64,000 nt of DNA from Nonlabens sp. MB-3u-79 (GTDB lineage: Bacteria; Bacteroidota; Bacteroidia; Flavobacteriales; Flavobacteriaceae). Shown here one piece after another: positions 76-61,910 of this stretch; positions within the stretch are counted from its first letter, which is position 1, and each line of letters opens with the position of its first letter. Under the pieces are notes generated by a model. It saw only the letters and a list, made by a program, of their open reading frames with translations, made no database searches and had not been told where the DNA came from. Position numbers and translations under genes: made by a program. Location: positions 2,595,501 to 2,659,500 of the forward strand of contig NZ_CP025116.1 in assembly GCF_002831625.1 (NCBI RefSeq). Reading direction: 5' to 3'.

Positions 76-272
76 GTAGAACAATGTATAAAAAACATAG
101 GGCGTTTGTGGTTTAACCGAAAGGTCTGTGTCTATTTACAAAGTCCGCTAAATATAAAATTTAGCGTTTACAGAAGAAAAGATAAAAGCAAAATATTTAT
201 ATTTAGCTAAGTAATAAACCGAAACAATAGTGCTTATCACCTGCCCTACGTTTCTTATACGTAACGTTGTGT
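76..272 (+). repeat. attC-like site 1
   Basis: Left inverse core GTAGAAC 76-82, right core GTTGTGT 266-272. The arms GTATAAAAAACATAGGGC and GCCCTACGTTTCTTATAC pair with two A-C mismatches (stem positions 7 and 12). It closes a cassette that begins outside the window. Confidence 0.75.
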
Positions 273-298
273 GTAAGTTAAAAAAACAGAACGCAAAA

Positions 299-658
299 AT
301 GACAGAAACTGTTGAATTGAGGAATAAGCCCGAATTGAAAATAATTCTGAACGAAAACGAATTCGAAATCGTTGATGCTTCTGAACCGAAAAACAGCGGA
401 ATCTACTCATTTGGAAAACTTAAAAATGCGAAATTGAATGTGGAAAGAACGAATTGGTTGATAACTACTTTAAGTATAATTGTGGATTTATTTACTGGAG
501 GTGCTGTAGGTGGAAAATTTAAGGATAAAGCAAACTTAAATCTTGATATGGAAAATCTGAATTTTAAAGTTTGGCTGATCAATGCAGATATTGAAAAAGC
601 AAAACGAGTAACGGAATTAATAAACAGTAAAAAAACCTACACACAACACCGTATATAG
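299..658 (+). CDS. Small membrane-associated protein of unknown function
   Basis: This 119-residue protein starts at ATG 299. The frame is open further upstream to 230, but that part lies inside attC-like site 1, so 299 is preferred. One hydrophobic stretch (about residues 57-75, LITTLSIIVDLFTGGAVGG) could be a membrane segment or a glycine-rich hairpin; the rest is charged and K/E/N-rich. The stop codon (656-658) lies inside the following attC-like site, so the last residues (about THRI-like tail after KTYTQ) are encoded by the recombination site. It is the only gene of its cassette (267-647). I do not recognise the family. Confidence 0.7.
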   Translation: MTETVELRNKPELKIILNENEFEIVDASEPKNSGIYSFGKLKNAKLNVERTNWLITTLSIIVDLFTGGAVGGKFKDKANLNLDMENLNFKVWLINADIEKAKRVTELINSKKTYTQHRI

Positions 659-832
659 CTCATAGCTAATTAGTTGTTTAATCGAAGTTATGGCATATTT
701 GGAAGTCCGCCAAATTTTTTAATTTGGCTTATTGAGAAAAAAGATAATAATAAAATTAAAAAATTGGCTTGTGCTTAACTGAAAGGTAATCGCTATTTTG
801 CACGCTACGAGCCATATACATCACCGTTATGC
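641..832 (+). repeat. attC-like site 2 (family A)
   Basis: Left core ACACAAC 641-647 is complementary to GTTGTGT at 266, the start of the same cassette. Right core GTTATGC 826-832. Outer arms GTATATAGCTC / GAGCCATATAC; the inner hairpin is built from AAATTTTTTAATTTGGC and AAATTAAAAAATTGGC. Confidence 0.8.
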
Positions 833-844
833 TACATTAGACCA

Positions 845-1630
845 ATGAAACAAACATTAATACTTTTAATTGGAATTTTAGTTTCCACAACAACTTTTTC
901 GCAGAACAAAGCGACGGAATTATATACTTCTGGAAACTCGAATTTTAAATCAGGAAAATTTCAAGAGGCAATTTCAAATTATACGGAATTGATGGAAATG
1001 GTGGACGAAAAAACTGTTCGAAAAACTTGTTTCATAAATCGTGGACTATCATATGACCGAATTAAAAAATATGATTTAGCAATATCTGACTTTACAGAAG
1101 CAATTAAGTTGGACAGCACTGATATGGCTTCCTTTATAGACAGAGGACTTTCTCAAATGCACGCTGGAAATTTAGAAAAAGCAAAAGAGGATTTTAATTA
1201 TGTCGTTGTAAAAAACAATAACAATGGAATGATGGAAGCATCACTTTATTGGCTCGCTCGAATTAATTATTCTCAAGGTAAGTTTGAGGAAGTAATTAAA
1301 AATTGTGACAGATATTTTACCATAAACGCAAAAGACCCTGAATTATATTTCATTCGTGGAACGGCGAACGATATGTTGCGGAATTTTGAGCAATCAATAA
1401 TTGACTATTCAAAAGCAATTGAATTAAAACCAAATTATGTGGAATCTATTGCAAATCGTGGAACTGCGAAAATCAATCTTCTGACTGGAAACGGAAATTT
1501 ACAACCGAGTAAAAAAGAAACGAAAAGTGCTTGTAAAGATTTAAAGAAAGCGAAAGAATTGGGAGATAATGCAGTCGATGATTTAATTTATGTTTATTGC
1601 GACAGAAAAGATAAAAAGAAACGGAATTAA
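845..1630 (+). CDS. Secreted tetratricopeptide-repeat protein
   Basis: A 261-residue protein with an N-terminal signal peptide (about residues 1-20, ending TTTFSQ). It is followed by about five TPR-like helical hairpins from residue 23 to about 205 (for example INRGLSYDRIKKYDLAISDF and IRGTANDMLRNFEQSIIDY), with the usual G-Y-A/F-P spacing. TPR domains are protein-protein interaction scaffolds, so it probably binds a partner in the periplasm or at the outer membrane; no catalytic domain is visible. The C-terminus is Lys-rich. It is alone in its cassette (827-1644), with ATG only 13 bases after the core, so there is almost no room for its own promoter. Confidence 0.85.
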   Translation: MKQTLILLIGILVSTTTFSQNKATELYTSGNSNFKSGKFQEAISNYTELMEMVDEKTVRKTCFINRGLSYDRIKKYDLAISDFTEAIKLDSTDMASFIDRGLSQMHAGNLEKAKEDFNYVVVKNNNNGMMEASLYWLARINYSQGKFEEVIKNCDRYFTINAKDPELYFIRGTANDMLRNFEQSIIDYSKAIELKPNYVESIANRGTAKINLLTGNGNLQPSKKETKSACKDLKKAKELGDNAVDDLIYVYCDRKDKKKRN

Positions 1631-1637
1631 TAACGTA

Positions 1638-1769
1638 GCATAACACCGTATATAATTTATTGCTAGTTCTAGCCTACTTACGAAAATCCTCGCGGATTTT
1701 CTATTCGGTTTGTATTTGCTAAATTAGGTGCTTAAAACACGCAACAAACCATATACAAACAAGTTGTAA
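1638..1769 (+). repeat. attC-like site 3 (family B variant)
   Basis: Left core GCATAAC 1638-1644 pairs with GTTATGC at 826, extending to GTAGCATAAC (10 nt). Right core GTTGTAA 1763-1769. The loop carries the AAAATCC..GCGGATTTT hairpin. Confidence 0.8.
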
Positions 1770-1796
1770 AACATTTGAACAAAACCACGAACTGAA

Positions 1797-2633
1797 TTGG
1801 GAACTTGGGGAACAGCCATAAAAAGTAATGATACTTCAGCAGATATTTATGCTGACTTTTTTGATTTGTATAATGACGGAAAAGAACCAACTGAAATCAA
1901 AAACAAATTGATTTCCGACAATCCAAACGGAACAAATGACTTTTGGTTTACATTGGCTTTAGCTCTTTGGGAAACTAAAAGCTTGCCAAATGACATTTTG
2001 GAAAAAGTTCGGGAAATAATCGAAAGTGAATCTGATTTAAAAGTTTGGAAAGAACTTGATGCAAGCGAATCTGACATAAAGAAAAGAAAAGTTGTTCTTG
2101 ATAAATTTTTGATAAAATTAGAATCGGAGAAAGCAAAACCAAAAGCCAGAAAGCGAATTTCCAAGAAAGAACCAATATTTGAAAAAGGAAGTTGTTTAAC
2201 ATTCAAATTGGAAAATGGAAATTATGGTGGCGGAATCGTTTTAGAATCTGACTTTGAAACAGGTTTTGGTTACAATCTAATTGTTACTACAAGAATAAAT
2301 CAGACAAGTAAGCCAACAGTTTCTGATTTTAAAAAATGTAATGTTTTAGTTGCAAGTTTTGGGAATTGGAAAGAAGAGTCAAAAGTAACTTGGTATTTAC
2401 CAAAAATGTATAAAAAAGACTTTGCCGAATTGTTTGAAAATATTGGAAAAATTCCAATCGAGAGAAATTACACACCGAATGGAAGTGAAATAAGAGCAAG
2501 TTTTTCAGCAGGTTGGCAACATATTATCGAGCCAGTAAATCAACAATTGGAATATGAAAAGGCAAACGGAATAACTAAATCATTTTCGATTGACAAGTTG
2601 ATTAAACGAAAAAAATGGTGGCAATTGAAATAA
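1797..2633 (+). CDS. DUF4259-domain protein
   Basis: A 278-residue protein using a TTG start (1797). The N-terminus (MGTWGTAIKSNDTSADIY) is the characteristic opening of DUF4259 proteins (MGxWGxxxFxND), which supports this start. Residues about 5-100 form the DUF4259-like helical region with the DFWFTLALALWE segment. A basic linker (residues 102-125, KPKARKR) leads to a second, probably beta-rich domain of unknown type. No signal peptide is present, so it is cytoplasmic. The DUF's biochemical role is not established. It is the single gene of cassette 1764-2647. Confidence 0.75.
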   Translation: MGTWGTAIKSNDTSADIYADFFDLYNDGKEPTEIKNKLISDNPNGTNDFWFTLALALWETKSLPNDILEKVREIIESESDLKVWKELDASESDIKKRKVVLDKFLIKLESEKAKPKARKRISKKEPIFEKGSCLTFKLENGNYGGGIVLESDFETGFGYNLIVTTRINQTSKPTVSDFKKCNVLVASFGNWKEESKVTWYLPKMYKKDFAELFENIGKIPIERNYTPNGSEIRASFSAGWQHIIEPVNQQLEYEKANGITKSFSIDKLIKRKKWWQLK

Positions 2634-2640
2634 AAACGTT

Positions 2641-2772
2641 TTACAACAACGTGTATAATTAATGGCTAGCCCTCGCCTACTCACAAAAATCCTAGCGGAT
2701 TTTCTATTCGGTTTGTATTTACTAATTTAGGTGCTTAAAACACGCCACTAATCATACACAAGACCGTTGTGC
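2641..2772 (+). repeat. attC-like site 4 (family B)
   Basis: Left core TTACAAC 2641-2647 pairs with GTTGTAA at 1763. Right core GTTGTGC 2766-2772. Arms GTGTATAATTAATGGC / GCCACTAATCATACAC with the position 7 and 12 A-C mismatches. Confidence 0.8.
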
Positions 2773-2778
2773 AACATT

Positions 2779-3366
2779 ATGAAAAACCTTTTCCTTACGT
2801 TATTTAGTTTACTTTTTTCAAGCATAATTTTTGCTTGCGACTGTGAATATGGGGGGAATTTTTTAAAAGCTTCTGCATCCTCAGAAACTATAGTCAAAGC
2901 CAGAATAATTGAGCACATTTATCACACAAAAAATGGTAAAAGGTTTACAGATTATGAAGAATATTTTGCTGAAACTATGGAAAACGAATTTGATGATTTT
3001 TACGATACTGGAGAATCTATCAAAATTGAAGTACTTGAATTAATACGTGGAACTGAAACAAGAAAAACAATCGAAATTTTCAATACCGATGGAGCGGATT
3101 GTAGAGCAGAAATTAGTGGATTTGAAAAAGATAAAATTTATATAATTTCTATATATCAACCGAAAAGAAAATATTCAAAACTCCCAAATGAAACTGATTC
3201 AGATTATGCAATTGGAGCATGTTCGGAAAATTGGTTGGAATATTTAATTGACAAGAATGAAGTAAGGGGTTATATAACAGGAAAGAAAAGAAGAATAAAA
3301 AAAACTTATAGCTACGAAAAGCTTGTGAAGAAAATAACGTTGCACAACAATGTATATAAAAAATAG
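2779..3366 (+). CDS. Secreted Cys-rich protein, possibly TIMP/NTR-like
   Basis: A 195-residue protein from ATG 2779; an upstream GTT-derived extension is unlikely because it lies in the recombination site. The signal peptide (residues 1-18) ends at a mature N-terminus beginning CDCEYGG. The layout of mature Cys-x-Cys, then KARIIE, then a beta strand IKIEVLELIRGTE, then a later Cys pair (residues about 107 and 146) resembles bacterial NTR/TIMP-like secreted proteins; I am not certain of this. The stop (TAG 3364-3366) is supplied by attC-like site 5, giving an NVYKK tail. It is alone in its cassette. Confidence 0.7.
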   Translation: MKNLFLTLFSLLFSSIIFACDCEYGGNFLKASASSETIVKARIIEHIYHTKNGKRFTDYEEYFAETMENEFDDFYDTGESIKIEVLELIRGTETRKTIEIFNTDGADCRAEISGFEKDKIYIISIYQPKRKYSKLPNETDSDYAIGACSENWLEYLIDKNEVRGYITGKKRRIKKTYSYEKLVKKITLHNNVYKK

Positions 3367-3540
3367 CTCGAGTCATTGCTAACACAAAGGCTTGGGTGTT
3401 TTTGGAAAGTCGTCAAATTTTTAAATTTGACAAATTCCCGAAAATAAAATAATTAGTAAATTTAAAAATTCGGCTTGTGTATCATCAGAAAAGGTAATGC
3501 TTACTTTCAGCGCTACTTTTCATATACGGAACCGTTACCT
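3342..3540 (+). repeat. attC-like site 5 (family C)
   Basis: Left core GCACAAC 3342-3348 pairs with GTTGTGC at 2766. Right core GTTACCT 3534-3540. Arms GTATATAAAAAATAGC / GCTACTTTTCATATAC show A-C mismatches at positions 7 and 12. Confidence 0.8.
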
Positions 3541-3883
3541 ACAATAGCACAAAAACCCTAAGCTACGGCCAACGCTACAAAGATGCTCGGAATATAATTC
3601 TGTAGTAAATTATAGAGCCTCCCTCCGATCCATTACTGAGATGATACAAACAATGCACTCCGTGTTGCGGTAAACTGCGCGTATAAAACTCTGAGAGATC
3701 AAAACAATTCCAGATCATACAAACACCTAGGTAGTTAAAAAACAATCACCAGGGCGCTCCATTAGAACTCACAGGGTGAAAAGTAGAACTCGCTGGATGA
3801 AAATATATGAGAACCTTAGAACCGCAACACTCCAAATTTTTACTAGCTATGGAATATGGGAACGTGGTGCTACGGTAGGTAAC
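3535..3883 (+). repeat. Non-coding cassette, copy 1 of 5
   Basis: It begins TTACCTACAATAGCACAAAA and ends GTAGGTAAC, so its ends are complementary like those of the gene cassettes, but no ORF is conserved among copies. The short frames across its right end are not preserved between copies. Copies lie at 17608, 18932 (interrupted), 32640 and 34121. On the reverse strand the first 110 bases encode a hydrophobic stretch (YYLLQNYIPSIMVALAVAWG) that could be the remnant of a membrane protein. Confidence 0.75.
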
Positions 3884-4089
3884 AACGGTTATAATTCATT
3901 GCAAATTAAGAGCTCGCCAATGTCTGTTAGTGATTGGATCTACAGCCGCAGCCCTTTTGAGGTGTTTACTGAACTGTAGACTGGAGAAAAACCAGACCAC
4001 AAATAAAGTAAAAGAGCTGCGCTGCTTTTTGTGGCATCAAGATTTTGGCTTACTTTCATGCAACGAAATCATAACCGACGACGTTACCT
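3877..4089 (+). repeat. attC-like site 6 (family E)
   Basis: Left core AGGTAAC 3877-3883 pairs with GTTACCT at 3534. Right core GTTACCT 4083-4089. Arms GGTTATAATTCATTGCA / TGCAACGAAATCATAACC have one extrahelical base. At 213 bp it exceeds the usual 200-bp attC search limit. Confidence 0.75.
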
Positions 4090-4113
4090 GCAAGCTGAAC
4101 AAAAAGAACATAA

Positions 4114-4806
4114 ATGAAAATAAACGAATATTATATAAAGGCTAGATTGTTTCCGACAATTTTGACTTCAATTCCAATTCTCAGTTTGTATTTTTTTGGC
4201 TTCAGCGAAAAAATAATTGAGTTTATGACTTTTTTAGAAAGTTATAAGTGGGCTAGCGATATAACGCTTTCGATTGCCATAATTTATTTTCTCGTACAAA
4301 TCAACAGACTAATTTCAAAAGAATTATTTCAAAATATATTTTTCAAAGAAGAACTACATATGCCAACTACAAATTTTCTGCTTAATTCGGATACCACTTT
4401 GGCGAAATCAATTAAATCTCAAATAGTTCAGAAAATAGCTACTGACTTTGATATTCAATTACTTGACTCAAATTCTGAAAACGAAAATGAAGAAGAAGCT
4501 AGAAAAATTATTTCAAGTGCTGTGGCACAAGTTAGAAATGTAACTAGAGATAATTCAATGCTACTTCAACACAATATAGAATATGGATTTGTAAGAAATT
4601 TGATTGGTGGTTGCGTTTTAGCTTCGTTAATTTCAATATTAAATATCTTTCTATTTCAATACACTTTCCCAAACCCTTTTGCGTTCAAACTTAATTTAGC
4701 CTTTTTAGGTGTTTTCATTTTACCGATCGTTTTGAGTAAGTTTCTAATTAACAGATATGGAAAGTATTACGCAAAAATTTTATTCGAACAATATTTAAAA
4801 AAATAA
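4114..4806 (+). CDS. Four-helix membrane protein of unknown function
   Basis: A 230-residue protein with two predicted membrane helices near the N-terminus (about residues 13-30 and 48-65), a soluble charged domain (about 75-155, including an acidic SENENEEEARK segment), and two C-terminal helices (about 163-185 and 192-210). It is followed after 5 bases by a metallo-beta-lactamase-fold gene in the same cassette (4084-5853), so the two are probably co-translated and work together. The pairing of a membrane protein with a soluble hydrolase is reminiscent of effector/enzyme pairs in defence or signalling cassettes, but that is inference only. Confidence 0.75.
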   Translation: MKINEYYIKARLFPTILTSIPILSLYFFGFSEKIIEFMTFLESYKWASDITLSIAIIYFLVQINRLISKELFQNIFFKEELHMPTTNFLLNSDTTLAKSIKSQIVQKIATDFDIQLLDSNSENENEEEARKIISSAVAQVRNVTRDNSMLLQHNIEYGFVRNLIGGCVLASLISILNIFLFQYTFPNPFAFKLNLAFLGVFILPIVLSKFLINRYGKYYAKILFEQYLKK

Positions 4807-4811
4807 AGGAA

Positions 4812-5837
4812 ATGGATTTTAGTATCGATATGCTATCGCTTGGCAATGCAGATTGCAATATAATATGGACAAAAGCAGAAAACGCTGACTTTGTAACAAT
4901 AATTGATGGTGGTAACCCAAAAGACGCAAAAACAATTATTGAGCATTATGAAAGCTATATAAAACCACATATCTCTGACGATAGTCCAATATTAATAATT
5001 AATACCCATCCTCATTCCGACCATATCGGTGGCTTGGTAGATTTAGTTCATTATTTTAAAAATAAGATTGCTCGATTCTATTACAATGACCCAACAGACT
5101 ACATTGAAGAAGCAAAAAGAATTGAAATAAAAAGCTTAAATGAATCATTTTTGTATTCGAACCAAAGAGTTAAAAAGCTTTTTGCCTCGTTACGACAGTC
5201 CGATGACCTAAGTGATATTCTAGCACAATATAAAATTTCTAAATTAGAAGCCTTTTCAGACAATAATCTAGACCATAATTTATTTGAATTTGTTGGTCCG
5301 TCAAAAACATTTTATTTAGAGCAACTTGGATATTTTACAAACATTGACAATCTAAGAACTTCAGGTTCAAACATTCAACCTGAAAGCGATATTAATGAAG
5401 TACAAGAAGGATTAAATTCTTGCGATATAGTTGATGAAAAAAATGATGCTTCCGCAGAGAATTTGACATCAGTCTTGACAAAATTTATTGATTCCAGTAA
5501 TCGAAAGTACTTATTTACAGCTGATGCTGGAGTTGATGCTTTTGAAGCAGCAGTGAGTAATGGATATGATATTAAAGATTTACATTTTTGCCAATTACCG
5601 CATCACGGAAGTAGAAGAAATGTAAGTACGAATTGGATTAGTAATTTCAATCCTAAACGATTTTGGGTTTCCGCAAATGGAAGCAAAAAACACCCTAGAA
5701 AAGCTGTTATCAGTTGTATAAAGAAAAACTTGCCTGACTGCAAAACATATAGTACTCATAAAACAGGAACTATACATATTAATTCTAAATCCAATGTTTT
5801 TCCAGAGCGAAATTGGAGCACAGCAGAAGAATTATAA
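4812..5837 (+). CDS. Metallo-beta-lactamase-fold hydrolase (ComEC/Rec2-like MBL domain)
   Basis: A 341-residue soluble protein. The metal-binding motif HPHSDH is at residues 66-71. It follows a beta-strand entry (FVTIIDGG, residues 27-34) and is followed by a distal Asp in LFTADAG (about 236-240) and LPHHGS (about 260-265). This order and the LPHHGS motif resemble the soluble MBL domain of ComEC-like proteins and related nucleases or phosphodiesterases. The substrate cannot be deduced. It is the second gene of a two-gene cassette behind a membrane protein, so a membrane-coupled role is likely. No signal peptide. Confidence 0.82.
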   Translation: MDFSIDMLSLGNADCNIIWTKAENADFVTIIDGGNPKDAKTIIEHYESYIKPHISDDSPILIINTHPHSDHIGGLVDLVHYFKNKIARFYYNDPTDYIEEAKRIEIKSLNESFLYSNQRVKKLFASLRQSDDLSDILAQYKISKLEAFSDNNLDHNLFEFVGPSKTFYLEQLGYFTNIDNLRTSGSNIQPESDINEVQEGLNSCDIVDEKNDASAENLTSVLTKFIDSSNRKYLFTADAGVDAFEAAVSNGYDIKDLHFCQLPHHGSRRNVSTNWISNFNPKRFWVSANGSKKHPRKAVISCIKKNLPDCKTYSTHKTGTIHINSKSNVFPERNWSTAEEL

Positions 5838-5846
5838 AAAGCCAGC

Positions 5847-5978
5847 AGGTAACAATGTATATAAAAAATAGGCGAAACAGTAATAAAATATAGGCTTATG
5901 GCTCGTATCAAAGTTCGTGCTTATCCGAAATTTTCGGTGCTTAAAAATCGCCTACTTTTCATATACTAACCGTTACCT
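5847..5978 (+). repeat. attC-like site 7 (short family C)
   Basis: Left core GCAGGTAAC ends at 5853 and is a perfect 9-nt complement of GTTACCTGC at 4083. Right core GTTACCT 5972-5978. Confidence 0.8.
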
Positions 5979-5997
5979 ACAATTTGAACCAAACTTT

Positions 5998-6243
5998 ATG
6001 AATGCAACAGTAATTGGAATTATTATTGGAATTGTTTTGCTGTTTCTATTTTCTTTAATAAAAAAAGATAGCAAATTTGCTCATCTAGGAATTAATTTAA
6101 GTCGAATACATTGTCCAAAGTGCAATGAAAAACAGCCGATTGTTAGAAAACCGAATGGACAAAGACAAGCACTTTACGGAGGAAACACTTGTCGAAAATG
6201 CGGAACGGAAATGGATAAATATGGAGACATAATTTTGGACTAA
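5998..6243 (+). CDS. Small membrane-anchored zinc-ribbon protein
   Basis: An 81-residue protein from ATG 5998; a longer frame to 5917 lies within attC-like site 7 and is rejected. One hydrophobic helix (about residues 4-20, IIIGIVLLFLFS) is followed by a zinc ribbon with CPKC (about 42-45) and CRKC (about 66-69). It is likely anchored in the inner membrane with a cytoplasmic zinc domain. Its stop overlaps the start of the next small gene (TAATG), suggesting translational coupling. Confidence 0.75.
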   Translation: MNATVIGIIIGIVLLFLFSLIKKDSKFAHLGINLSRIHCPKCNEKQPIVRKPNGQRQALYGGNTCRKCGTEMDKYGDIILD

Positions 6244-6413
6244 TGGAGTTAAGCGTAATATTTAAATTGTTAATACCAGTAGCTCTAATCGGAGTAGGAA
6301 TATGGTTGAAAAAAAGCGAAAATATTGAGCAAAACAAAATGCGAAAGTTATGGTGGTTATTCATTACAATCGGAACATTTTTATTCATATTTAGAATAAT
6401 TAAATACGTGTAA
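6243..6413 (+). CDS. Small two-helix membrane protein (56 aa)
   Basis: This ORF starts at ATG 6243, sharing its A with the upstream TAA, and ends at TAA 6411-6413. The 56 residues contain two hydrophobic segments (about 4-22, VIFKLLIPVALIGVGIWL, and 36-52, LWWLFITIGTFLFIF) joined by a charged loop (KKSENIEQNKMRK). The coupling to the zinc-ribbon gene and its position just before the closing site support a real second gene in the cassette. Function unknown. Confidence 0.6.
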   Translation: MELSVIFKLLIPVALIGVGIWLKKSENIEQNKMRKLWWLFITIGTFLFIFRIIKYV

Positions 6414-6421
6414 AAAACTGT

Positions 6422-6614
6422 AGGTAACACCGTATATAGCTCATAGCTAATTAGTTGTTTAGTCAAAGTGAAGGCGTTTTTAGAAGTCCGCCAAATTTTT
6501 TAATTTGGCTTATTGAGAAAAAAAAGTAATAATAAAATTAAAAAATTGGCTCGTGCTCAACCGAAAAGTAATCGCTATTTTGCACGCTACGAGCCATATA
6601 CATCACCGTTGTGC
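6422..6614 (+). repeat. attC-like site 8 (family A)
   Basis: Left core AGGTAAC 6422-6428 pairs with GTTACCT at 5972 (GTAGGTAAC, 9 nt). Right core GTTGTGC 6608-6614. Confidence 0.8.
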
Positions 6615-6639
6615 TTAATGCCAAAAAAACCGAACTGAA

Positions 6640-7392
6640 TTGATATTTAGACCATTGAAATACGAAAAATATGCTCAAAAAGCGGTTGATAAACTTCAAG
6701 AAAGTCAACCTGAATTTCGGACAAAATTTGACACGGATAATTACGATAATTGGTTTTATAATCAATCCAGCGAAACATTAAGATTATATAGTAATGACAA
6801 AGAAATCTATTTCAAATATATTCCAGTTGGAACATTCTCGCTGAATATTAATAGCTGGATGTGGGCTTGGGCGAATGAAGACTCTGTTGAACCAAGAAAA
6901 TTTCGGACTTTAAAAATTAAAGAATTTGGAGAAAAAAAGAATTATGAAAACCTGACCAAATCGCACTTTGAGGGAGGTAAATATACTGGTTGGGAATTAA
7001 CAGCAATTGCTTTCGAAATAATTGGCGGAATTGGAACTTATCGAGTGATTTCTGAACATTTAGAAAAGTATTTTTTACTAACTGAACAAATAACAAAAGA
7101 AGAAGCCGGAAAAATTGAGAGTGAATTAATTGAATGCAGTGTTCACGGAAAAATAAGGAAAGCATTTATTTGCCAACATTTGAATACTAATCAAAAAACC
7201 GGATTTGAAGAAGCTTTTGAGACTTATCGAGGAATGGAACTGGACGAAGAAGATGATTTTCAAGCTTGGTGTTCAAAATGCGAAAAAACACGAATAAAAA
7301 CTGATGGTTGGAATGACGAATCTATGGAGTTCGCTAAAATAAAATTAGTGTGCGAAAGGTGCTATTTTGAAATTAAGGAAATAAACCTGTGA
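6640..7392 (+). CDS. DUF6882-like protein with C-terminal Cys pairs
   Basis: A 250-residue cytoplasmic protein from a TTG start (6640); no ATG fits the first 100 bases. The segment GTFSLNINSWMWAWANE (about residues 64-80) resembles the W-x-W-A-W signature of DUF6882 proteins. The C-terminal part has a Cys/His patch (CSVHGK.. CQH, about 163-176) and two CxxC pairs (WCSKC about 210, CERC about 239), consistent with a zinc-binding module. Single gene of cassette 6609-7412. Function not established. Confidence 0.7.
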   Translation: MIFRPLKYEKYAQKAVDKLQESQPEFRTKFDTDNYDNWFYNQSSETLRLYSNDKEIYFKYIPVGTFSLNINSWMWAWANEDSVEPRKFRTLKIKEFGEKKNYENLTKSHFEGGKYTGWELTAIAFEIIGGIGTYRVISEHLEKYFLLTEQITKEEAGKIESELIECSVHGKIRKAFICQHLNTNQKTGFEEAFETYRGMELDEEDDFQAWCSKCEKTRIKTDGWNDESMEFAKIKLVCERCYFEIKEINL

Positions 7393-7405
7393 ATAAAGCA
7401 CTAAA

Positions 7406-54705: not shown

Positions 54706-54721
54706 GAGAAAACCAGACACC

Positions 54722-55024: not shown

Positions 55025-55213
55025 TTGAGACGTGTATAGTTCATAGCTAATGAGTTGCTTAATAAAAGTTTAAACATATTTTCAAGTCCGCCAATTTTTA
55101 TAATGTGGCTTTTTGAAAAAAAAGGCAATAATAAAATTAAAAAACTGGCTTTAGCTTAACCGAAAAGTAATTGCTATTTTGCGCGCTACGTGAAATATAC
55201 ATCACAGTTAGCC
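55025..55213 (+). repeat. attC-like site 48 (family A, left end decayed)
   Basis: Arms TGTATAGTTCATAGCTAATGAGTTGC and ..GCTACGTGAAATATAC are diverged. The left end TTGAGAC is not a core. Right core GTTAGCC 55207-55213. Confidence 0.6.
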
Positions 55214-55246
55214 TTCATTAAAACCAATTATTACCAATTATTACCA

Positions 55247-55978
55247 ATGATAAAATTCTTTAGAAAAACTAGACAGAACCTACTTACAGAAGGAAAAACT
55301 GAAAAGTATTTAAAATACGCTATTGGAGAAATTTTATTAGTTGTAATAGGAATAATTATAGCATTACAATTGAACAATTGGAATGAAACACGAAAGAAAC
55401 AAAACCTTAAAAATGAGTACTTGGTATCATTAAAAAATGATTATCGAAAAGACACCGTACAATTAAGTGATAGAATTTACCAAAACAAAAAAAGACTCAA
55501 AGTTTTAATGCATATTTATCCCGATTCATTAAGCACCTCTGTTACAAAACCAGAAGAGTTCATTTCACTATTCAAAAACAAATTTGGGAAAGGATTAAGA
55601 GTTATTAATACGTACAATACCAATAGCTTTAATTTACTAATCTCTAGTGGAAACATAGATTTGTTAGATAAACAGTTTCGAGAATCCATAATGGAACTAA
55701 ATAGACTCCAGGTATTTGAAAATCAAGTTTCATTAGGTAATCGGGATTATTTTTTCAGATTTATGTCAAACTACTTCCTTAAATATCCCGCAGATACTCC
55801 ATTTAACTCAATTAACCAAATTTTATGGAATGGTATAGAAACTAATGAACTACCGAAGGATTTAATGGCATATTTTGGTCAGGAACGATATACAATAGAG
55901 AGGTATTTAGAACTAAGCAGAGACGTCTTACTTCAAACCGAACTAGTGTTAAAACTATTAGAAGACCTTGAAAATTAA
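55247..55978 (+). CDS. DUF6090-family protein
   Basis: A 243-residue protein from ATG 55247 (the frame back to 55190 is site 48 sequence). MIKFFRKTRQNLLTEGKTEKYLKYAIGEILLVVIGIIIALQLNNWNE is the DUF6090 opening. One membrane helix spans about residues 27-45, followed by coiled coil and a helical C-terminal domain. Paralogue of 50438, strongly similar at the N-terminus and diverged afterwards. Function unknown. Cassette ends match (GTTAGCC / GGCTAAC). Confidence 0.88.
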   Translation: MIKFFRKTRQNLLTEGKTEKYLKYAIGEILLVVIGIIIALQLNNWNETRKKQNLKNEYLVSLKNDYRKDTVQLSDRIYQNKKRLKVLMHIYPDSLSTSVTKPEEFISLFKNKFGKGLRVINTYNTNSFNLLISSGNIDLLDKQFRESIMELNRLQVFENQVSLGNRDYFFRFMSNYFLKYPADTPFNSINQILWNGIETNELPKDLMAYFGQERYTIERYLELSRDVLLQTELVLKLLEDLEN

Positions 55979-56046
55979 TAATCTGCGAGAACACTTAGAC
56001 GAAGTATAAGAACTAAAATAGAATCTTATACAAGTAAATAACGAAA

Positions 56047-56179
56047 GGCTAACAACGTGTAAAAATAATTGCTCTGTTCTTGCCTACTCGGAAAATCCTA
56101 CGGATTCCCATCTGGTTCGTTCCATTTTGTGTAGGTTTGACGCTTAATAACGTAATTATACTTAAGCAAACCGTTAGTG
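56047..56179 (+). repeat. attC-like site 49 (family G/B variant)
   Basis: Left core GGCTAAC 56047-56053 pairs with GTTAGCC at 55207. Right core GTTAGTG 56173-56179. Confidence 0.68.
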
Positions 56180-56226
56180 GTCATTACCATGAACGAACCT
56201 TAAAATAATTAACCAACTTAACAAAT

Positions 56227-57522
56227 ATGACTACAATAAAGAAATCATTCTCTCCTTTAAAGCCTTCTGACCGAATACAATCTCTTGACATTATGAGAGG
56301 CATTGTATTACTTGGAATTCTTTTAATGAATATTAATGGTATGGGGCTAGCCGGATCTTATGGAGATCCAACTGTTTCAGGCGGTGCTACTGGATGGAAC
56401 CTTACTACTTGGATTACTACAGAATTATTTTTTTCAGGTACTATGCGAGCCCTTTTTTCGCTATTATTTGGAGTAGGTATGTTTATATTTCTAGATAGGC
56501 TTGAGAAAAAAAAAGCAGGAATAAATGCTGCAAACATTTATTTTAGAAGACTTCTTTGGTTACTGGTTTTCGGATTAATACACGGGTATTTATTGCTTTG
56601 GACAGGTGACATTTTATATGATTATGCTCTAATGGGTTTTATAGTGTTTTCATTTAGAAAGTTGCCTCCTATTAAATTAACACTTGTAGCATTATTACTC
56701 TTTTCAATTGGCGCGCTATGGAGTTATGCAGATTATAAAAATGATATAAAATTCGTCGAAGACCTAGAACTTGTAAAAAACTATAAATTAGAAGGTACAA
56801 CAGTATCAAAAGAACTTCAAGGAGTTGATATGAAATGGGAAAAGCGGGAATGGAAAAGATCTCCAGAAGGCATCGCTGAATACAATGCTAATATGCGAAA
56901 AGGATATTTAGATGTGGTAGCTTTTCTTGCTCCTGAAAATCAGCGAACCGATACAATGAATCCTTACAGATTCCAATTATGGGATGTTCTTAGCATGATG
57001 TTATTAGGTATTGCTCTTTTTAAATGGAAAGTTCTTTCAGCTGAAAAATCGTATAAATTCTATGGTATAATCACTTTGTTGGGTTATTTGATTGGTCTTA
57101 GTGTAAATTATTATGAGATTCAATCAATCATGGAAAGTAACTTTTCGCCCTTAAACTTTTCTAAGTCATATATTACATACGATTTAGGAAGAGTCCCTGT
57201 TGCCATTGGTCACGTTGGTGCCATCATGCTGTTCTGTAAATTGCCTGTTTTGAAATGGTTAAAAAGCAGTCTTGCTGCTGTAGGTAAAATGGCACTAACC
57301 AATTACATAATGCATTCAGTTTTTGCCATGTTTATTTTCACGGGTGCAGGATTTGGGCTGTTTGGAACATTCCAACGTTTTGAATTATTATACATCGTAT
57401 TTGGGATATGGATTTTCCAATTATTTCTAAGCCCAATTTGGTTAAAGTATTATCAATATGGACCATTGGAATGGATGTGGAGAAACTTAAGTTATTTAAA
57501 AAAGCATCCTTTCAAGAAGTAG
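56227..57522 (+). CDS. DUF418-family membrane protein
   Basis: A 431-residue inner-membrane protein with about ten helices. RIQSLDIMRGIVLLGILLMNINGMG near the N-terminus, and the C-terminal DUF418 part with AAVGKMALTNYIMHSVFAMFIFTGAGFGLFG and WLKYYQYGPLEWMWR, are diagnostic of the YeiB/DUF418 family. The role is unestablished; related proteins are linked to acyl transfer or transport. Cassette ends almost match (GTTAGTG / CGCTAAC). Confidence 0.9.
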   Translation: MTTIKKSFSPLKPSDRIQSLDIMRGIVLLGILLMNINGMGLAGSYGDPTVSGGATGWNLTTWITTELFFSGTMRALFSLLFGVGMFIFLDRLEKKKAGINAANIYFRRLLWLLVFGLIHGYLLLWTGDILYDYALMGFIVFSFRKLPPIKLTLVALLLFSIGALWSYADYKNDIKFVEDLELVKNYKLEGTTVSKELQGVDMKWEKREWKRSPEGIAEYNANMRKGYLDVVAFLAPENQRTDTMNPYRFQLWDVLSMMLLGIALFKWKVLSAEKSYKFYGIITLLGYLIGLSVNYYEIQSIMESNFSPLNFSKSYITYDLGRVPVAIGHVGAIMLFCKLPVLKWLKSSLAAVGKMALTNYIMHSVFAMFIFTGAGFGLFGTFQRFELLYIVFGIWIFQLFLSPIWLKYYQYGPLEWMWRNLSYLKKHPFKK

Positions 57523-57628
57523 AGTTAAGCAACATCTAATTCTTTTTAATAGAGCGGTCTTTATTAAACTAATAGTATATATCAAATAAAAGTAGCACAA
57601 TATGCTATAGAAAATTAGAATAACGCAG

Positions 57629-57760
57629 CGCTAACAATATATAAAATTAATTGCTAGTTCTAGCTTACTTACATAAATCCTCTCGGATTTTCTATTCGGT
57701 TTTTATTTGCTAAATTAGGTGCTTAAAACACGCCACTAATCAGACAAAAGACCGCTGTCA
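57629..57760 (+). repeat. attC-like site 50 (family B variant, degenerate core)
   Basis: Left core CGCTAAC 57629-57635 has a mismatch to GTTAGTG at 56173. The right core is GCTGTCA 57754-57760 instead of GTT. Confidence 0.62.
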
Positions 57761-57776
57761 TTAATTAAAAAAAAAT

Positions 57777-58649
57777 ATGAAAGCACATATAATTACTTTA
57801 GTCTTTATATTTATTTGTGGATTTGGTTTTGGACAATCTGAATGTGATACTACAATTGACTACGGGAATAATCCTTCTACAGGAAAATATGCCCAAGTTA
57901 ATGGAATCAAAATGTATTATGAAACTTACGGGGATTCAACTAAACAACCATTATTAATAATCCACGGAAACGGAGGCTCAGTTAAAAGCGGTCGATGCCA
58001 AATAGAGTATTTTAAAAATGATTATTATGTTATAATTGCAGATAGTAGATTTCAAGGGAAATCAGAAAACGGAAATGAAGAATTAACATTTAAGTTAATC
58101 ACTGAAGATTATAATTCGTTTATAGATCATCTAAAATTAGATTCAGTCTACATTATTGGTCAAAGTGATGGTGGAATTATTGGTTTACAACTAGCAATTA
58201 AATACCCATCGAAAGTCAAAAAACTTGTATCAATCGCCCCTAATTTGAGACCTGATAATTCCGCAGTTCATCAATGGGCTATTTCTATGACTAAGAGAGA
58301 CCTGAATGAGATAGAATTAAAGATAAAACAAGGAGATAACTCAAAGAAAACTATTAGAAATAAAGCGTTATATAATTTAATGGATAAGTATCCTAATATT
58401 ACTAATAAGGAACTTTTTAACATTGAATCTCCTGTTTTAATCATAGCTGGAGATCAAGATATTATTAAACTTGAGCATATTCTTGAAATATATCAGAATA
58501 TTCCAAAAGCACAATTATTTATAATGCCAGGTGCAACACATTTTATGATAAGAAGTGAACATAAACTTCTGAATCAAATGGCCAACAGGTTTTTGAGTAA
58601 TCCATTTAAAAGACCAACAACAAAAGAAATAATATTAAATAACAAATAA
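57777..58649 (+). CDS. Secreted alpha/beta hydrolase
   Basis: A 290-residue protein with a signal peptide (about residues 1-20, ending GFGFGQ). A classical alpha/beta hydrolase fold is seen: LIIHGNGGSVKS (oxyanion HGNGG, about 62-70), nucleophile in IIGQSDGGIIGLQ (Ser about 127), Asp in IIAGDQDIIK (about 225) and His in GATHFMIR (about 259). Substrate unknown. Start ATG 57777 is just after the degenerate core. Confidence 0.88.
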   Translation: MKAHIITLVFIFICGFGFGQSECDTTIDYGNNPSTGKYAQVNGIKMYYETYGDSTKQPLLIIHGNGGSVKSGRCQIEYFKNDYYVIIADSRFQGKSENGNEELTFKLITEDYNSFIDHLKLDSVYIIGQSDGGIIGLQLAIKYPSKVKKLVSIAPNLRPDNSAVHQWAISMTKRDLNEIELKIKQGDNSKKTIRNKALYNLMDKYPNITNKELFNIESPVLIIAGDQDIIKLEHILEIYQNIPKAQLFIMPGATHFMIRSEHKLLNQMANRFLSNPFKRPTTKEIILNNK

Positions 58650-58655
58650 AACTAC

Positions 58656-58787
58656 AGGCAACACCTTATAAAATTAATTGCTAGTTCTAGCTTACTTACA
58701 TAAATCCTCTCGTATTTTCTATTCGTTTTTTATTTGCTATAATTAGTTACTTGAACACGCCACTAATCATACAAAAACACGTTGAAA
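58656..58787 (+). repeat. attC-like site 51 (family B variant)
   Basis: Left core AGGCAAC 58656-58662, right core GTTGAAA 58781-58787. The left core does not match the preceding degenerate start. Confidence 0.65.
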
Positions 58788-58798
58788 CAAGCTGAAAA

Positions 58799-59398
58799 AT
58801 GAAAACTGAAAACAAATTAATAAGCACTAGTTTACTGACTGCAATTACGGCTTCTTTATGTTGTATTACACCAGTTTTAGCAATTATAGTAGGTACAAGC
58901 GGAATTGCTTCAATATTCTCTTGGATTGAGCCATTTAGACCTTATTTGATAGGACTAACAATTTTAGTTCTTGGATTTGCTTGGTATCAAAAACTAAAAC
59001 CTAAGAAAGAAATTGACTGCGAATGTGAGACCGATGAAAGACCGAAATTTATTCAATCAAAAAAGTTTTTAGGAATTGTAACCGGGTTTGCAATTCTTAT
59101 GTTAGCTTTTCCATACTATTCGGGAATTTTCTACCCAAAAACAGAGAAACAAATAATGGTAGTTGAAAAATCAGACCTATTTACAACAGAATTTAAAATT
59201 AGTGGAATGACCTGTGCGAGTTGCGAAGAACACGTTAATCACGAAGTAAATAAACTCAACGGAATTGTAAACTCAAAAGCGTCATACGAAAATGGAAACG
59301 CAATCATTGAATTTGACAGAACTAAAACCAATGAGGCGCAAATTGAAAAAGCAATTAACTCTACAGGTTATAAGGTAACCGACAAGGAAGAAAACTAA
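58799..59398 (+). CDS. MerTP-type mercuric transport fusion protein
   Basis: A 199-residue protein. The MerT-like N-terminal part has a vicinal Cys pair in the first helix (SLCCITP, about residues 21-22), a second and third helix, and a CEC motif in the loop. A heavy-metal-associated (HMA/MerP) domain follows at the C-terminus with KISGMTCASCEEH (about 132-144). In Bacteroidota, MerT and MerP are often fused as MerTP, which imports Hg(II) to a cytoplasmic reductase. No reductase or merR is nearby. The downstream gene overlaps by one base. Confidence 0.9.
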   Translation: MKTENKLISTSLLTAITASLCCITPVLAIIVGTSGIASIFSWIEPFRPYLIGLTILVLGFAWYQKLKPKKEIDCECETDERPKFIQSKKFLGIVTGFAILMLAFPYYSGIFYPKTEKQIMVVEKSDLFTTEFKISGMTCASCEEHVNHEVNKLNGIVNSKASYENGNAIIEFDRTKTNEAQIEKAINSTGYKVTDKEEN

Positions 59399-59604
59399 TG
59401 GAAGTTCAATTAAAATCAGAAATTACTTGTCCAAACTGTGGACATAAAAAAGTAGAGGAAATGCCAACAAACGCTTGTCAATTTTTTTACGAATGTGAGA
59501 ATTGCAAAACAGGTCTGAAACCAAAAGAAGGAGATTGTTGCGTTTATTGTTCTTATGGAACTGTAGCTTGTCCACCAATTCAAGAGAATAAAAGTTGTTG
59601 TTAA
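59398..59604 (+). CDS. Small Cys-rich protein (GDCCVYC type) linked to MerTP
   Basis: A 68-residue protein starting at the ATG overlapping the previous stop (TAATG). It has a zinc-ribbon CPNCGHKK (about residues 10-17), CENC, and the conserved GDCCVYCSYGTVACPP run (about 45-60), then a terminal CC. This gene regularly follows merTP in Bacteroidota mercury loci and is likely a metal-binding accessory. Its exact function is not established. Confidence 0.85.
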   Translation: MEVQLKSEITCPNCGHKKVEEMPTNACQFFYECENCKTGLKPKEGDCCVYCSYGTVACPPIQENKSCC

Positions 59605-59613
59605 ATAACTAGT

Positions 59614-59741
59614 TGCCAACAACATGTGTGATTAATTGCTTGGTCACTGCCGACTTCTAAACATTCCTTCGGAATATTTTATCTGTGATTTATTTACTAA
59701 ATTAGAGGATTAACTTCTATTAAAACACAAATACGTTGTAG
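59614..59741 (+). repeat. attC-like site 52 (family B variant)
   Basis: Left core TGCCAAC 59614-59620 is mismatched to GTTGAAA at 58781. Right core GTTGTAG 59735-59741. Confidence 0.6.
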
Positions 59742-59769
59742 GATAGGTGAAAAATTAAAACTTTCAAGT

Positions 59770-61716
59770 ATGAAAATTCAAAACCTTAGTCAAAAATTGA
59801 TTAACGCTCATCTTGTTTCAGGTAAGATGAATCCCGGTAACGAAATCGCATTAAAAATTGATCAGGTATTATTACAAGATGCTACAGGTACTTTAGTAAT
59901 GCTGGAATTGGAAGCCTTTAATTTAAAAAAGATTAAAGCAGAGGTAGCAGTTCAGTATGTGGACCATAATCTACTTCAAACGGATTATAAGAACATGGAT
60001 GATCATATCTTTCTTCAGTCAGCCGCTGATCGCTTTGGATTTTGGTTTAGTAAGTCTGGAAACGGCATTAGTCATGTTGTACATATGGAACGTTTTGGTA
60101 AACCGGGCCAAACCCTATTGGGCTCAGATAGCCATACTCCTGCAGGAGGTGGCATTGGAATGCTTGCTATGGGTACAGGTGGCTTAGATGTAGCACTGGC
60201 TTCGGCAGGTGAGCCATATTATATTAAAATGCCGAAAATCATGGGCATCAAGCTCATTGGAAAGCTGCCGGACTGGATAAGTGCTAAGGATATTGTTTTA
60301 GAAATGCTTCGCAGGTATGATGTGACTGGAGGGCGAGGATATATCTTAGAATATTATGGTGAGGGCTTGAAGTGCTTGAGTGCTTGGGATCGTCATGTTA
60401 TAACAAATATGGGTACGGAGTTAGGTGCTACTTCTTCTGTATTTCCTTCAGATGAGATCACCCATGAATTCCTACGAAAAGAAGGAAAAGAAAATGACTG
60501 GGTTAAACTGGAAGCCGATGAAGGAGCATCCTACGATCATTACGAAGAAATAAATTTATCTGAACTAGAACCTTTAATTGCACTTCCCAGTAGCCCGGGG
60601 AAAGTTGTCCCAGTAAGGGAAGTTAGCGGATTAAAAGTTGCCCAAGTCGTTATTGGCTCTTCTGCCAATCCCGGACTGCGTGATTTTTGGATTGTATCTC
60701 AAATTGTAAAAGGAAATGTGTTGTCTCCCAATATCTCATTCGATGTCAATCCATCTTCTCGTCAGGTCTTGGAAAACTTAATGGAAATGAAGGCTCTAGG
60801 GCCTTTAATTGCTGCAGGTGCAAGACTTCATCAATCCGGTTGTATGGGATGCATTGGTATGGGACAAGCCCCTGCTACCAATACCATTAGTCTCCGAACG
60901 ATGCCTCGTAATTTTCCCGGACGTTCAGGAACACTCGAAGATCAGGTCTATTTATGTAGTCCAGAAACCGCAGCCGCCGCAGCACTAATAGGGGAAATTA
61001 CTGATCCGAGAGAACTCGAAACACTCAGGAATATATCATATCCTAAATGGGAAGAACCCACCCATATTAAGATAAACAACAATATGTTAATTGCTCCTAG
61101 TGGTAAATCTACTGAATTGTTGAAGGGGCCGAACATTAAAACACTTCCCGATTTTGAAGAGCTTCCAGATGAAATGGAAATTCCTATTTTGTTAAAAATG
61201 GATGACAATATTTCAACCGATGGAATACTAAAAGCAGGGGCCGATGTGCTGCCTTTACGTTCAAATATTCCAGAGATAAGCAAGTTTGCTTATTATGCCA
61301 TTGATCAAAGCTTTTATGATCGCGCCATTGAAAATCAAAAAAACTATAAAGGCTTTTGTATTATAGCTGGTGATAATTATGCCCAAGGCTCAAGCAGAGA
61401 ACATGCGGCTTTGGCTCCCAAGTATTTGGGGCAAAAGTTTACTGTCGCTAAATCCTATGCCCGTATTGGCTGGCAAAACCTAATTAATTTTGGTATTATT
61501 CCTTTTGAGTTTAAAAACACAGATGATTGGGACAAACTGGAACAAGGGGATGTTTTACGGATAGAAAACATTAGGAAAACAATCAAAAACAATGATTCAA
61601 TAACTGCCACTGTAGTTGGAAAAGGAATAGAAATTCAGCTGGCATTCAACATCAGTAACAGACAAGTTGAAATCATTTTAAAAGGAGGTATTATTAATTA
61701 TATGAGGAAAATATGA
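59770..61716 (+). CDS. Aconitate hydratase (aconitase)
   Basis: A 648-residue protein of the single-chain aconitase group. Motifs include DSHTPAGGGIGMLAMGTGGLDVA (about residues 117-139), SGCMGCIGMGQAP (about 357-369, iron-sulfur ligand Cys) and the C-terminal swivel-domain GDNYAQGSSREHAALAP (about 540-556). It interconverts citrate and isocitrate with a 4Fe-4S cluster in the cytoplasm. It is likely an accessory copy, since the primary aconitase would normally be elsewhere. It starts 28 bases after a core; the site that follows is degenerate. Confidence 0.93.
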   Translation: MKIQNLSQKLINAHLVSGKMNPGNEIALKIDQVLLQDATGTLVMLELEAFNLKKIKAEVAVQYVDHNLLQTDYKNMDDHIFLQSAADRFGFWFSKSGNGISHVVHMERFGKPGQTLLGSDSHTPAGGGIGMLAMGTGGLDVALASAGEPYYIKMPKIMGIKLIGKLPDWISAKDIVLEMLRRYDVTGGRGYILEYYGEGLKCLSAWDRHVITNMGTELGATSSVFPSDEITHEFLRKEGKENDWVKLEADEGASYDHYEEINLSELEPLIALPSSPGKVVPVREVSGLKVAQVVIGSSANPGLRDFWIVSQIVKGNVLSPNISFDVNPSSRQVLENLMEMKALGPLIAAGARLHQSGCMGCIGMGQAPATNTISLRTMPRNFPGRSGTLEDQVYLCSPETAAAAALIGEITDPRELETLRNISYPKWEEPTHIKINNNMLIAPSGKSTELLKGPNIKTLPDFEELPDEMEIPILLKMDDNISTDGILKAGADVLPLRSNIPEISKFAYYAIDQSFYDRAIENQKNYKGFCIIAGDNYAQGSSREHAALAPKYLGQKFTVAKSYARIGWQNLINFGIIPFEFKNTDDWDKLEQGDVLRIENIRKTIKNNDSITATVVGKGIEIQLAFNISNRQVEIILKGGIINYMRKI

Positions 61717-61774
61717 TTTGAAATATTGTCGTTTTTCAGGTTATGTTTTAATAACAAAGTAGTATAAACACGTT

Positions 61775-61910
61775 CTACAATACCGTGTATAATTTATGGC
61801 TAGCCCTCGCCTACTTATGAAAATCCTATTGGATTTTCTATTCGGTTGGTGATTTGATAAATCATGTGGTTAAAACATTCTATAAACCACATACAACCTC
61901 TTTGTTAACG
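61775..61910 (+). repeat. attC-like site 53 (family B, decayed)
   Basis: The left end CTACAAT 61775-61781 is one mismatch from the expected CTACAAC (start GTTGTAG at 59735). Arm GTGTATAATTTATGGC. The right end is unclear (GTTAACG 61904-61910). It is the last site I can see. Confidence 0.5.

What the first reader, a model, noticed from the sequence alone, without database searches (positions are those of the whole stretch)
76..61910. A very long integron-like cassette array with non-canonical core sites in a Bacteroidota genome
About 53 attC-like palindromes separate almost all + strand genes across 62 kb. Only the GTT of the right core and AAC of the left core are constant; the neighbouring bases (GTTGTGC, GTTGCCA, GTTACCT, GTTATGC) often break the classical GTTRRRY rule. 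Several sites are longer than 200 bp, the usual attC search limit. Tools built on classical attC models could miss much of it. No integrase is in the window. This may be an undescribed integron type with its own recombinase.
Basis: partly seen in the sequence, partly recalled or inferred. Interest (0 to 1): 0.95.

Follow-up and report, generated by a model that had tools for sequence, protein, structure and literature searches.

The report
Second kind of integron, non-IntI recombinase
A likely flavobacterial chromosome carries an 85-kb row of 74 cassette units directly behind a recombinase that is not the classical integron enzyme; together they are predicted to capture, shuffle and store genes as integrons do, and the recombinase's N-terminal domain turns up in 131 of 295 sampled genomes of its taxonomic class, where the classical enzyme was found in only one.

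Summary
The array starts 22.5 kb left of the window, directly behind a 384-aa tyrosine recombinase and an attI-like site, and runs 84.6 kb: 74 cassette units, 65 with intact boxes. Each intact cassette is bounded by a private 13-bp inverted box (GTT-N7-ATT ... AAC-N7-AAC). Boxes pair within a cassette (371 of 385 N7 positions; 2000 shuffles at most 183) but not between neighbours, so the outer stem is complete only in an excised circle. Two cassettes occur as identical copies (2 and 3 copies), with identity starting at or within 3 bases of GTT. Five complete cassettes sit elsewhere in the genome behind attI-like cores. The recombinase lacks the IntI additional domain and falls outside the IntI group of a quick tree. 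Most sites (53 of 60) need no bulged base; instead fixed A.C mismatches of the top strand become G.T wobbles in the bottom strand. The recombinase's N-terminal domain is in 131 of 295 class genomes, IntI in 1 of 295. Recombination itself is inferred, not shown. No description was found in an open-licence library. I read it as an integron-like platform with its own recombinase lineage and hairpin code.

The parts
1..62125 (+). Window part of the cassette array. The array begins left of the window: recombinase gene at C1:2571834-2572988 (window -23666 to -22512), attI-like site at C1:2572989-2573021 with core GATATAACCA|GTT, cassettes from C1:2573022 on; units 1-26 of 74 start left of the window
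266..647 (+). cassette 27 (box 12 WC of 13)
826..1644 (+). cassette 28, TPR protein
1763..2647 (+). cassette 29
2766..3348 (+). cassette 30
3534..3883 (+). cassette 31, ORF-less repeated type
4083..5853 (+). cassette 32 (two ORFs)
5972..6428 (+). cassette 33
6608..7412 (+). cassette 34 (box 10 of 13)
7591..8078 (+). cassette 35
8258..9081 (+). cassette 36
9261..9878 (+). cassette 37
10058..10748 (+). cassette 38
10927..11456 (+). cassette 39
11635..12782 (+). cassette 40
12900..13572 (+). cassette 41
13690..14482 (+). cassette 42
14662..15076 (+). cassette 43
15141..15838 (+). cassette 44
16024..16551 (+). cassette 45
16731..17428 (+). cassette 46
17607..17934 (+). cassette 47, ORF-less repeated type
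18135..18752 (+). cassette 48
18931..26732 (+). unit 49: ORF-less repeated cassette split by about 7.4 kb holding two - strand secreted-protein genes (19270-26071)
26933..28160 (+). cassette 50
28278..29022 (+). cassette 51
29202..29695 (+). cassette 52
29760..30838 (+). cassette 53
30957..31507 (+). cassette 54
31686..32520 (+). cassette 55
32639..32966 (+). cassette 56, ORF-less repeated type
34120..34469 (+). cassette 57, ORF-less repeated type
34670..35623 (+). cassette 58, 100% identical to units 5 and 7 more than 50 kb away
36845..37588 (+). cassette 59
37769..38540 (+). cassette 60 (box 11 of 13)
40010..42845 (+). unit 63 (box 11 of 13)
45172..45901 (+). cassette 65 (box 12 of 13)
50407..51157 (+). 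cassette 66 (box 10 of 13)
51276..52256 (+). cassette 67 (box 10 of 13)
52374..53829 (+). cassette 68 (box 11 of 13)
55207..56053 (+). cassette 69 (box 10 of 13)
57319..62125 (+). decayed distal end: units 70-74, boxes 7-9 of 13 (their starts are unsure)

Best explanation
This is an integron-like platform: a chromosomal tyrosine recombinase gene lies directly in front of an attI-like site and 74 cassette units, and it likely inserts and excises these cassettes by recombining hairpin sites at a GTT triplet. Shown: gene order, conserved attI-like core (GATATAACnA|GTT), cassette-private 13-bp inverted boxes, strand-coherent cassettes, copy boundaries at or near GTT, decay away from the recombinase, off-array copies behind attI-like cores, recurrence in relatives. 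Inferred: the excised cassette is a circle whose bottom strand folds into one hairpin (13-bp outer stem, 3/6-nt unpaired spacers, 16-bp inner stem); the recombinase would read the strand mainly from fixed G.T wobbles (A.C in the top strand) and the spacer asymmetry rather than from bulged bases, cut at GTT, and join the cassette to double-stranded attI. In the array the outer stem is mispaired because its halves come from two neighbouring cassettes, so excision would have to rely on the inner stem. The N-terminal domain possibly helps to bind the folded site.
For: Position and catalysis. Own-box pairing: 371 of 385 N7 positions over 55 unique cassettes against a shuffled mean of 150.4, maximum 183 in 2000 shuffles (the 55 were chosen for >=10 of 13 pairs). 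Own N7 perfect in 46 of 65; neighbouring halves within one array site perfect in 0 of 61, mean 2.74 matches against 2.70 for other cassette pairs. Identical copies: c1=c14 over 782 bp starting and ending at GTT; c5=c58 over 1076 bp from one base left of GTT to the next GTT; c5, c7 and c58 identical over the whole cassette. Strand signature: bottom strand more stable in 64 of 66 sites in circle form and 62 of 66 in array form, mean difference -4.2 against -0.5 kcal/mol for shuffles. A.C at R11 in 51 of 55 unique boxes; at L7 in 53 of 53 and L12 in 46 of 53 gapless fits with 3/6 spacers; with one bulge allowed, L7 in 55 and L12 in 52 of 60. In 92 cassettes of other genomes, chosen without using these positions, A.C at R11 in 88, L12 in 91, L7 in 72. 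Decay: >=11 of 13 in 58 of the first 60 and 3 of the last 14 units. Off-array: five complete cassettes behind attI-like cores. Relatives: attI-like core after the stop in 9 of 10 (read off the printed sequence); arrays. Survey: 131 of 295 against IntI 1 of 295.
Against: No recombination event was observed. No strain of the same species was available, and the empty-site test found no conserved flanks. Cassette proteins hardly recur in the relatives then fetched: five rows, four at 28-42% identity (one of them inside a cassette with another box) and one at 89% without its box. Only 5 of 23 same-genus genomes hold the recombinase domain while 17 of 23 match site DNA, so arrays often persist without it. 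In the class survey 7 of 20 fetched regions showed no strict cassette, three of them with little or no DNA after the gene (L199, L200, L201). 7 of 60 sites do have one extra, bulged base at a fixed place. In the wider class the spacers vary (3/6 in 4 of 25) and L7 is A.C in only 11 of 25, in Rufibacter 0 of 2. The attI-like pattern has six matches in the genome but its reversed control seven, so the pattern alone is not enriched. The tree is a quick one, rooted for drawing only, and the 26 focal recombinases need two changes on it, not one. One relative's recombinase (G018) is split over two frames.
Confidence: 0.88

Rival explanations
1. A classical IntI integron, or a cluster of ordinary attC sites left by one (CALIN), that has merely drifted in sequence.
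For: Same layout (recombinase, attI, array, copy boundary at GTT, bottom-strand hairpin bias). The recombinase matches TIGR02249 weakly, 168.1 bits. 7 of 60 sites show a bulged base.
Against: Score under the 265-bit cut-off, profile 181-239 unmatched, 2A3V 185-244 unmatched, outside the IntI group; 8 of 65 boxes fit GTTRRRY; no bulge needed in 53 of 60 sites; IntI in 1 of 295 class genomes.
Confidence: 0.05
2. The recombinase acts like Xer on double-stranded sites; the private boxes serve as the two inverted arms of a double-stranded core in the circle, and no single-stranded hairpin is needed.
For: Xer-like fold and best PDB hits XerA; no I2-like stretch; inverted AAC/GTT around the attI core.
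Against: Consistent bottom-strand stability (64 of 66), and A.C outnumbering G.T 248 to 58 in the inner arms (344 other mismatches in that gapped fit) at fixed positions across genera, are hard to explain for a double-stranded substrate.
Confidence: 0.15
3. The palindromes are terminators, REP-like repeats or structured RNA elements between co-oriented genes, unrelated to the recombinase.
For: They lie between co-directional genes and fold strongly (bottom energy 13.8 kcal/mol below shuffles).
Against: Private box pairing across whole genes, block identity from GTT to GTT, first box directly behind the recombinase in many genomes, no Rfam family in the window at gathering thresholds.
Confidence: 0.02

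Closest known systems
Sedentary chromosomal integron (IntI / attI / attC)
   Same: Recombinase, adjacent attI, long row of mostly single-ORF cassettes in one direction, complementary core halves carried by each cassette, copy boundary at GTT, bottom-strand hairpin preference, some ORF-less cassettes, decay far from attI.
   Different: Recombinase lacks the IntI additional domain and the IntI group of the tree; it points into the array (most intI genes point away: recalled); core is GTT-N7-ATT and private to each cassette; mostly no bulged base, fixed G.T wobbles of the bottom strand instead; 3/6-nt spacers; other N-terminal domain.
CALIN (attC cluster without integrase)
   Same: Arrays without a recombinase motif in the fetched stretches of G003, G007, G013, G014, G015 and G016 look like its counterpart.
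   Different: In the window's genome the recombinase is present, and the sites are not classical attC.
XerA / XerC / XerD tyrosine recombinases
   Same: Core-binding and catalytic domains; XerA model 188.5 bits, best PDB hits 4a8e and 5hxy.
   Different: Extra N-terminal domain, cassette array, under every Xer cut-off listed. The genome has other tyrosine recombinases; dimer resolution was not tested.
attG insertion of integron cassettes (Loot et al. 2024; seen only as passages and a reference entry in PMC12901181)
   Same: Single cassettes outside the array.
   Different: Here the targets resemble the platform's own attI, whereas attG sites are described there as clearly divergent from classical att sites.

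Membership tests
Integron (IntI-based) | Integrase over the TIGR02249 cut-off (265 bits) | tested here: not met
   168.1 bits
Integron (IntI-based) | IntI additional domain (alpha-I2 region) | tested here: not met
   TIGR02249 181-239 and 2A3V 185-244 have no counterpart
Integron (IntI-based) | Recombinase inside the IntI clade | tested here: not met
   Quick ML tree of 79 rows, 19 of them IntI
Integron (IntI-based) | attI next to the recombinase, cassette starts at its GTT | tested here: met
Integron (IntI-based) | attC core GTTRRRY / RYYYAAC | tested here: not met
   8 of 65
Integron (IntI-based) | Two extrahelical bases in the folded bottom strand | tested here: not met
   53 of 60 inner stems fit best without a bulge; 7 of 60 show a single extra base; two bulges were not modelled
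Integron (IntI-based) | Bottom strand is the better hairpin | tested here: met
   64 of 66, shuffle control
Integron (IntI-based) | Recombination of attC with attI and attC | not testable with these tools
   Only footprints: identical copies, off-array copies
XerA (NF040815) | Score over the curated cut-off | tested here: not met
   188.5 against 220 bits
HARP / XPB-DRD-like domain (recombinase N-terminus) | Sequence or fold match | tested here: inconclusive

The most novel reading that the evidence does not exclude
Integrons arose twice, or split very early: a second recombinase lineage, widespread in this class of bacteria where IntI is nearly absent, runs cassette arrays by a different hairpin code. 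It marks the strand with fixed G.T wobbles in place of paired bulged bases, does without the alpha-I2 helix, and gives every cassette a private 13-bp lock that closes only in the excised circle.
Probability: 0.6. Interest if true: 0.96.

Novelty: new variant of a known kind. Interest (0 to 1): 0.93.

Why it matters
[quoted passage not shown] If this reading is right, the gap is partly a blind spot of tools that look for IntI and classical attC. A large reservoir of movable genes, with a beta-lactamase-like gene in one relative, would come into view. It also gives an independent test of how a tyrosine recombinase can use folded DNA: which features of IntI and attC are needed in principle, and which are one solution of two.

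Tried and rejected
Empty sites: a 3.5-kb query around the off-array insertion at C1:2714059 was searched in 23 same-genus genomes; outside the locus itself the rows fall almost all on the two site stretches, not on the flanks, so no empty site can be shown. Shared cassettes: cassette proteins against the loci fetched by then (L046-L130 left out) gave five rows, four at 28-42% and one at 89% without its box; no clear case of one cassette in two genomes. Anchor locus: 10 same-genus regions of 11-16 kb downstream of the same sigma-factor gene; only G005 has an array there, with a second-clade recombinase and other cassettes. HARP idea for the N-terminal domain: weak and inconclusive. Promoter motif TAnnTTTG in attI (recalled consensus): seen by eye in some attI sequences, not tested. 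My first claim that no site has a bulged base was wrong: 7 of 60 have one, and the section on the most novel reading was lowered from 0.62 to 0.60 for it. Whole-model fold search mostly reports the catalytic fold. Literature: 9 searches in an open-licence library gave listings and abstract starts; passages read in PMC8138268 (also one section), PMC9668308, PMC9024848, PMC3053210, PMC4792948, PMC12901181 and PMC8618304. None of those listings or passages describes this system; subscription papers and preprints were not searched. No covariance model was built; the box and stem tests replaced it. One search was an empty placeholder script.
Full report
Check of the observation. The window is C1:2595501-2659500 of a one-contig genome of 3.18 Mb. 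A motif scan and a box walk show that the palindromes are real, lie on one strand, and extend beyond the window to the left. The array starts at C1:2573022 and its last left-half site is at 2657623, 84.6 kb in all, cut by the walk into 74 units; 65 pair with their own box at 10 or more of 13 positions. The starts of the other nine units (20, 61, 62, 64, 70-74) are unsure. Eight false left-half hits were dropped by hand before this walk.

The recombinase. The genome holds five matches to the phage-integrase family. One, a 384-aa protein at C1:2571834-2572988, ends 33 bp before the GTT of the first cassette and points into the array. It matches the XerA model at 188.5 bits (cut-off 220) and the integron-integrase model at 168.1 bits (cut-off 265); the stretch of the latter that holds the IntI additional domain has no counterpart, nor has that part of the solved IntI4 (2A3V). 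The catalytic residues (assigned by recall) are invariant in nine aligned homologues. In a quick tree of 79 rows the 19 IntI sequences form one group and the 26 focal recombinases lie outside it, in two groups; both have members with arrays.

The cassette box. Intact cassettes begin GTT-N7-ATT-like and end with the reverse complement ahead of AAC. Over 55 unique cassettes (chosen for 10 or more of 13 pairs) 371 of 385 variable positions pair; 2000 shuffles give a mean of 150.4 and never more than 183. Position 11 is A.C in 51 of 55. In the array the left and right halves of one site come from neighbouring cassettes and pair no better than other cassette pairs (mean 2.74 against 2.70; 0 of 61 perfect). 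The full stem thus exists only if a cassette is closed on itself. This is the topology of integron cassettes, but with a longer and private core.

The hairpin. Behind AAC follow 3 unpaired bases, a stem of 16 positions, and before GTT 6 unpaired bases: best gapless fit in 53 of 60 sites, with A.C at stem position 7 in all 53 and at position 12 in 46, and no G.T at positions 1-16 of the top strand. When A.C counts as a pair and one bulge is allowed, 53 of 60 sites still need no bulge, 7 (six of the ORF-less type and unit 67) have one extra base at the same place, and A.C stands at L7 in 55 and L12 in 52 of 60. In the bottom strand these A.C are G.T wobbles. The bottom strand folds better in 64 of 66 sites in circle form and 62 of 66 in array form, far beyond composition. 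In 92 cassettes from other genomes, selected without these positions, R11 is A.C in 88 and L12 in 91; L7 is A.C in 61 of 65 in the genus and family sets but in only 11 of 25 of the wider class and 0 of 2 in Rufibacter, and the 3/6 spacers hold in 33 of 41, 21 of 24, 4 of 25 and 1 of 2. Classical attC sites carry two extrahelical bases, one of them contacted by the alpha-I2 helix of IntI (PMC3053210, passages). Here the helix is missing and the bulges mostly are, which fits together.

Footprints of movement. Units 1 and 14 are identical over 782 bp, from GTT to the next GTT; units 5 and 58 over 1076 bp, from one base left of GTT to the next GTT; units 5, 7 and 58 are identical over the whole cassette, unit 7 differing inside its site. 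Seven units carry one ORF-less cassette type at about 77-95% identity with different left neighbours. Pairing decays with distance from the recombinase (58 of the first 60 units against 3 of the last 14 at 11 or more of 13). Site matches also occur elsewhere in the genome. There, five complete cassettes follow attI-like cores. The pattern TATAACnAGTTN7AW has six exact matches in the genome: the array start, four of these five cassettes, and one place without a downstream box; the fifth cassette (C1:1742814) has a core with one base changed. The reversed control pattern has seven matches, so the pattern by itself is not enriched. Three of the off-array cores share a 32-bp sequence with no other match at up to 3 mismatches.

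Relatives. Of 58 relatives 10 hold the recombinase at 1e-60; 9 of these 10 have the attI-like core within about 120 bp of the stop (read off the printed sequence), and arrays follow in several where DNA is held. G005, of the same genus, has at the same chromosomal spot a second-clade recombinase, its own attI and other cassettes. Named records with box pairs behind the gene include Zunongwangia mangrovi, an uncultured Lutibacter, an uncultured Mesonia and a Rufibacter. Of 20 class-survey regions that I chose among the matches, 13 have strict cassettes and 11 also pass the looser walk with hairpin; control loci with other tyrosine recombinases give none. In the same genus arrays without a recombinase motif in the fetched stretch are frequent.

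Survey. The N-terminal domain of the recombinase occurs in 131 of 295 class genomes at 1e-6, IntI over its cut-off in 1 of 295 drawn in the same way (the listed handles agree, the unlisted ones cannot be compared). In the wider phylum sample IntI is over the cut-off in 105 of 395; of the 107 genomes matched at 1e-60 one is of the same class. Not every domain match is shown to be an array recombinase.

The N-terminal domain. AlphaFold gives a confident small fold for the domain of a homologue (L036; pLDDT 91.1). Its structural neighbours include the XPB damage-recognition domain and, lower, the SMARCAL1 HARP domain, both of which deal with branched or damaged DNA (recalled); scores are weak and tied with eIF1. 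A role in hairpin binding is a guess.

Mechanism and novelty. The best reading is an integron-like platform with its own recombinase lineage. It works like an integron; by the tests above it is not a member of the IntI-based family. Taxonomy of the window is inferred from its recombinase relatives. Nine paper searches found no description; preprints and subscription papers were not covered.

Noticed in passing
window 3534-3883, 17607-17934, 18931-26732, 32639-32966, 34120-34469; also -13765 and -8685: One ORF-less cassette type of about 325-350 bp occurs seven times at about 77-95% identity; a non-coding or regulatory cassette is possible. Its sites carry one bulged base.
   Followed up: partly
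window 19270-26071: Two - strand genes (595 and 1669 aa; PKD and Por secretion-tail domains) split one copy of the ORF-less cassette.
   Followed up: partly
C1:465797, 589973, 1721304, 1742814, 2714059 (L214-L218): Complete cassettes outside the array behind attI-like cores, four on the - strand and one on +; three cores share a 32-bp sequence. The right flank of three of them looks like the start of a further cassette (by eye).
   Followed up: partly
L155:2484-3566 and 4551-5450: Same-genus genome G005: second-clade recombinase at the same locus; an ORF in its array looks like an intact class A beta-lactamase (named by eye).
   Followed up: partly
L043, L045, L041: Recombinases of the second clade seem to carry the N-terminal domain in tandem (by eye).
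   Followed up: no
L243-L251: Arrays without a tyrosine-recombinase motif in the fetched stretch in six same-genus genomes; strict cassettes on one strand per locus, one exception with the looser walk (L248).
   Followed up: partly
L021 / G018:C66: Recombinase split over two reading frames; its fetched stretch shows one intact cassette.
   Followed up: no
array and window proteins (alignment A5, 71 members): Single matches to defence-related models (LmuA, RTasMBL, Avs1a, ankyrin and peptidase types); three alpha/beta hydrolases; many others look like small secreted or membrane proteins (by eye).
   Followed up: partly
window 46000-62000: Distal end holds larger genes (954-aa PAS histidine kinase, aconitase-family protein) with decayed or missing sites.
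   Followed up: partly
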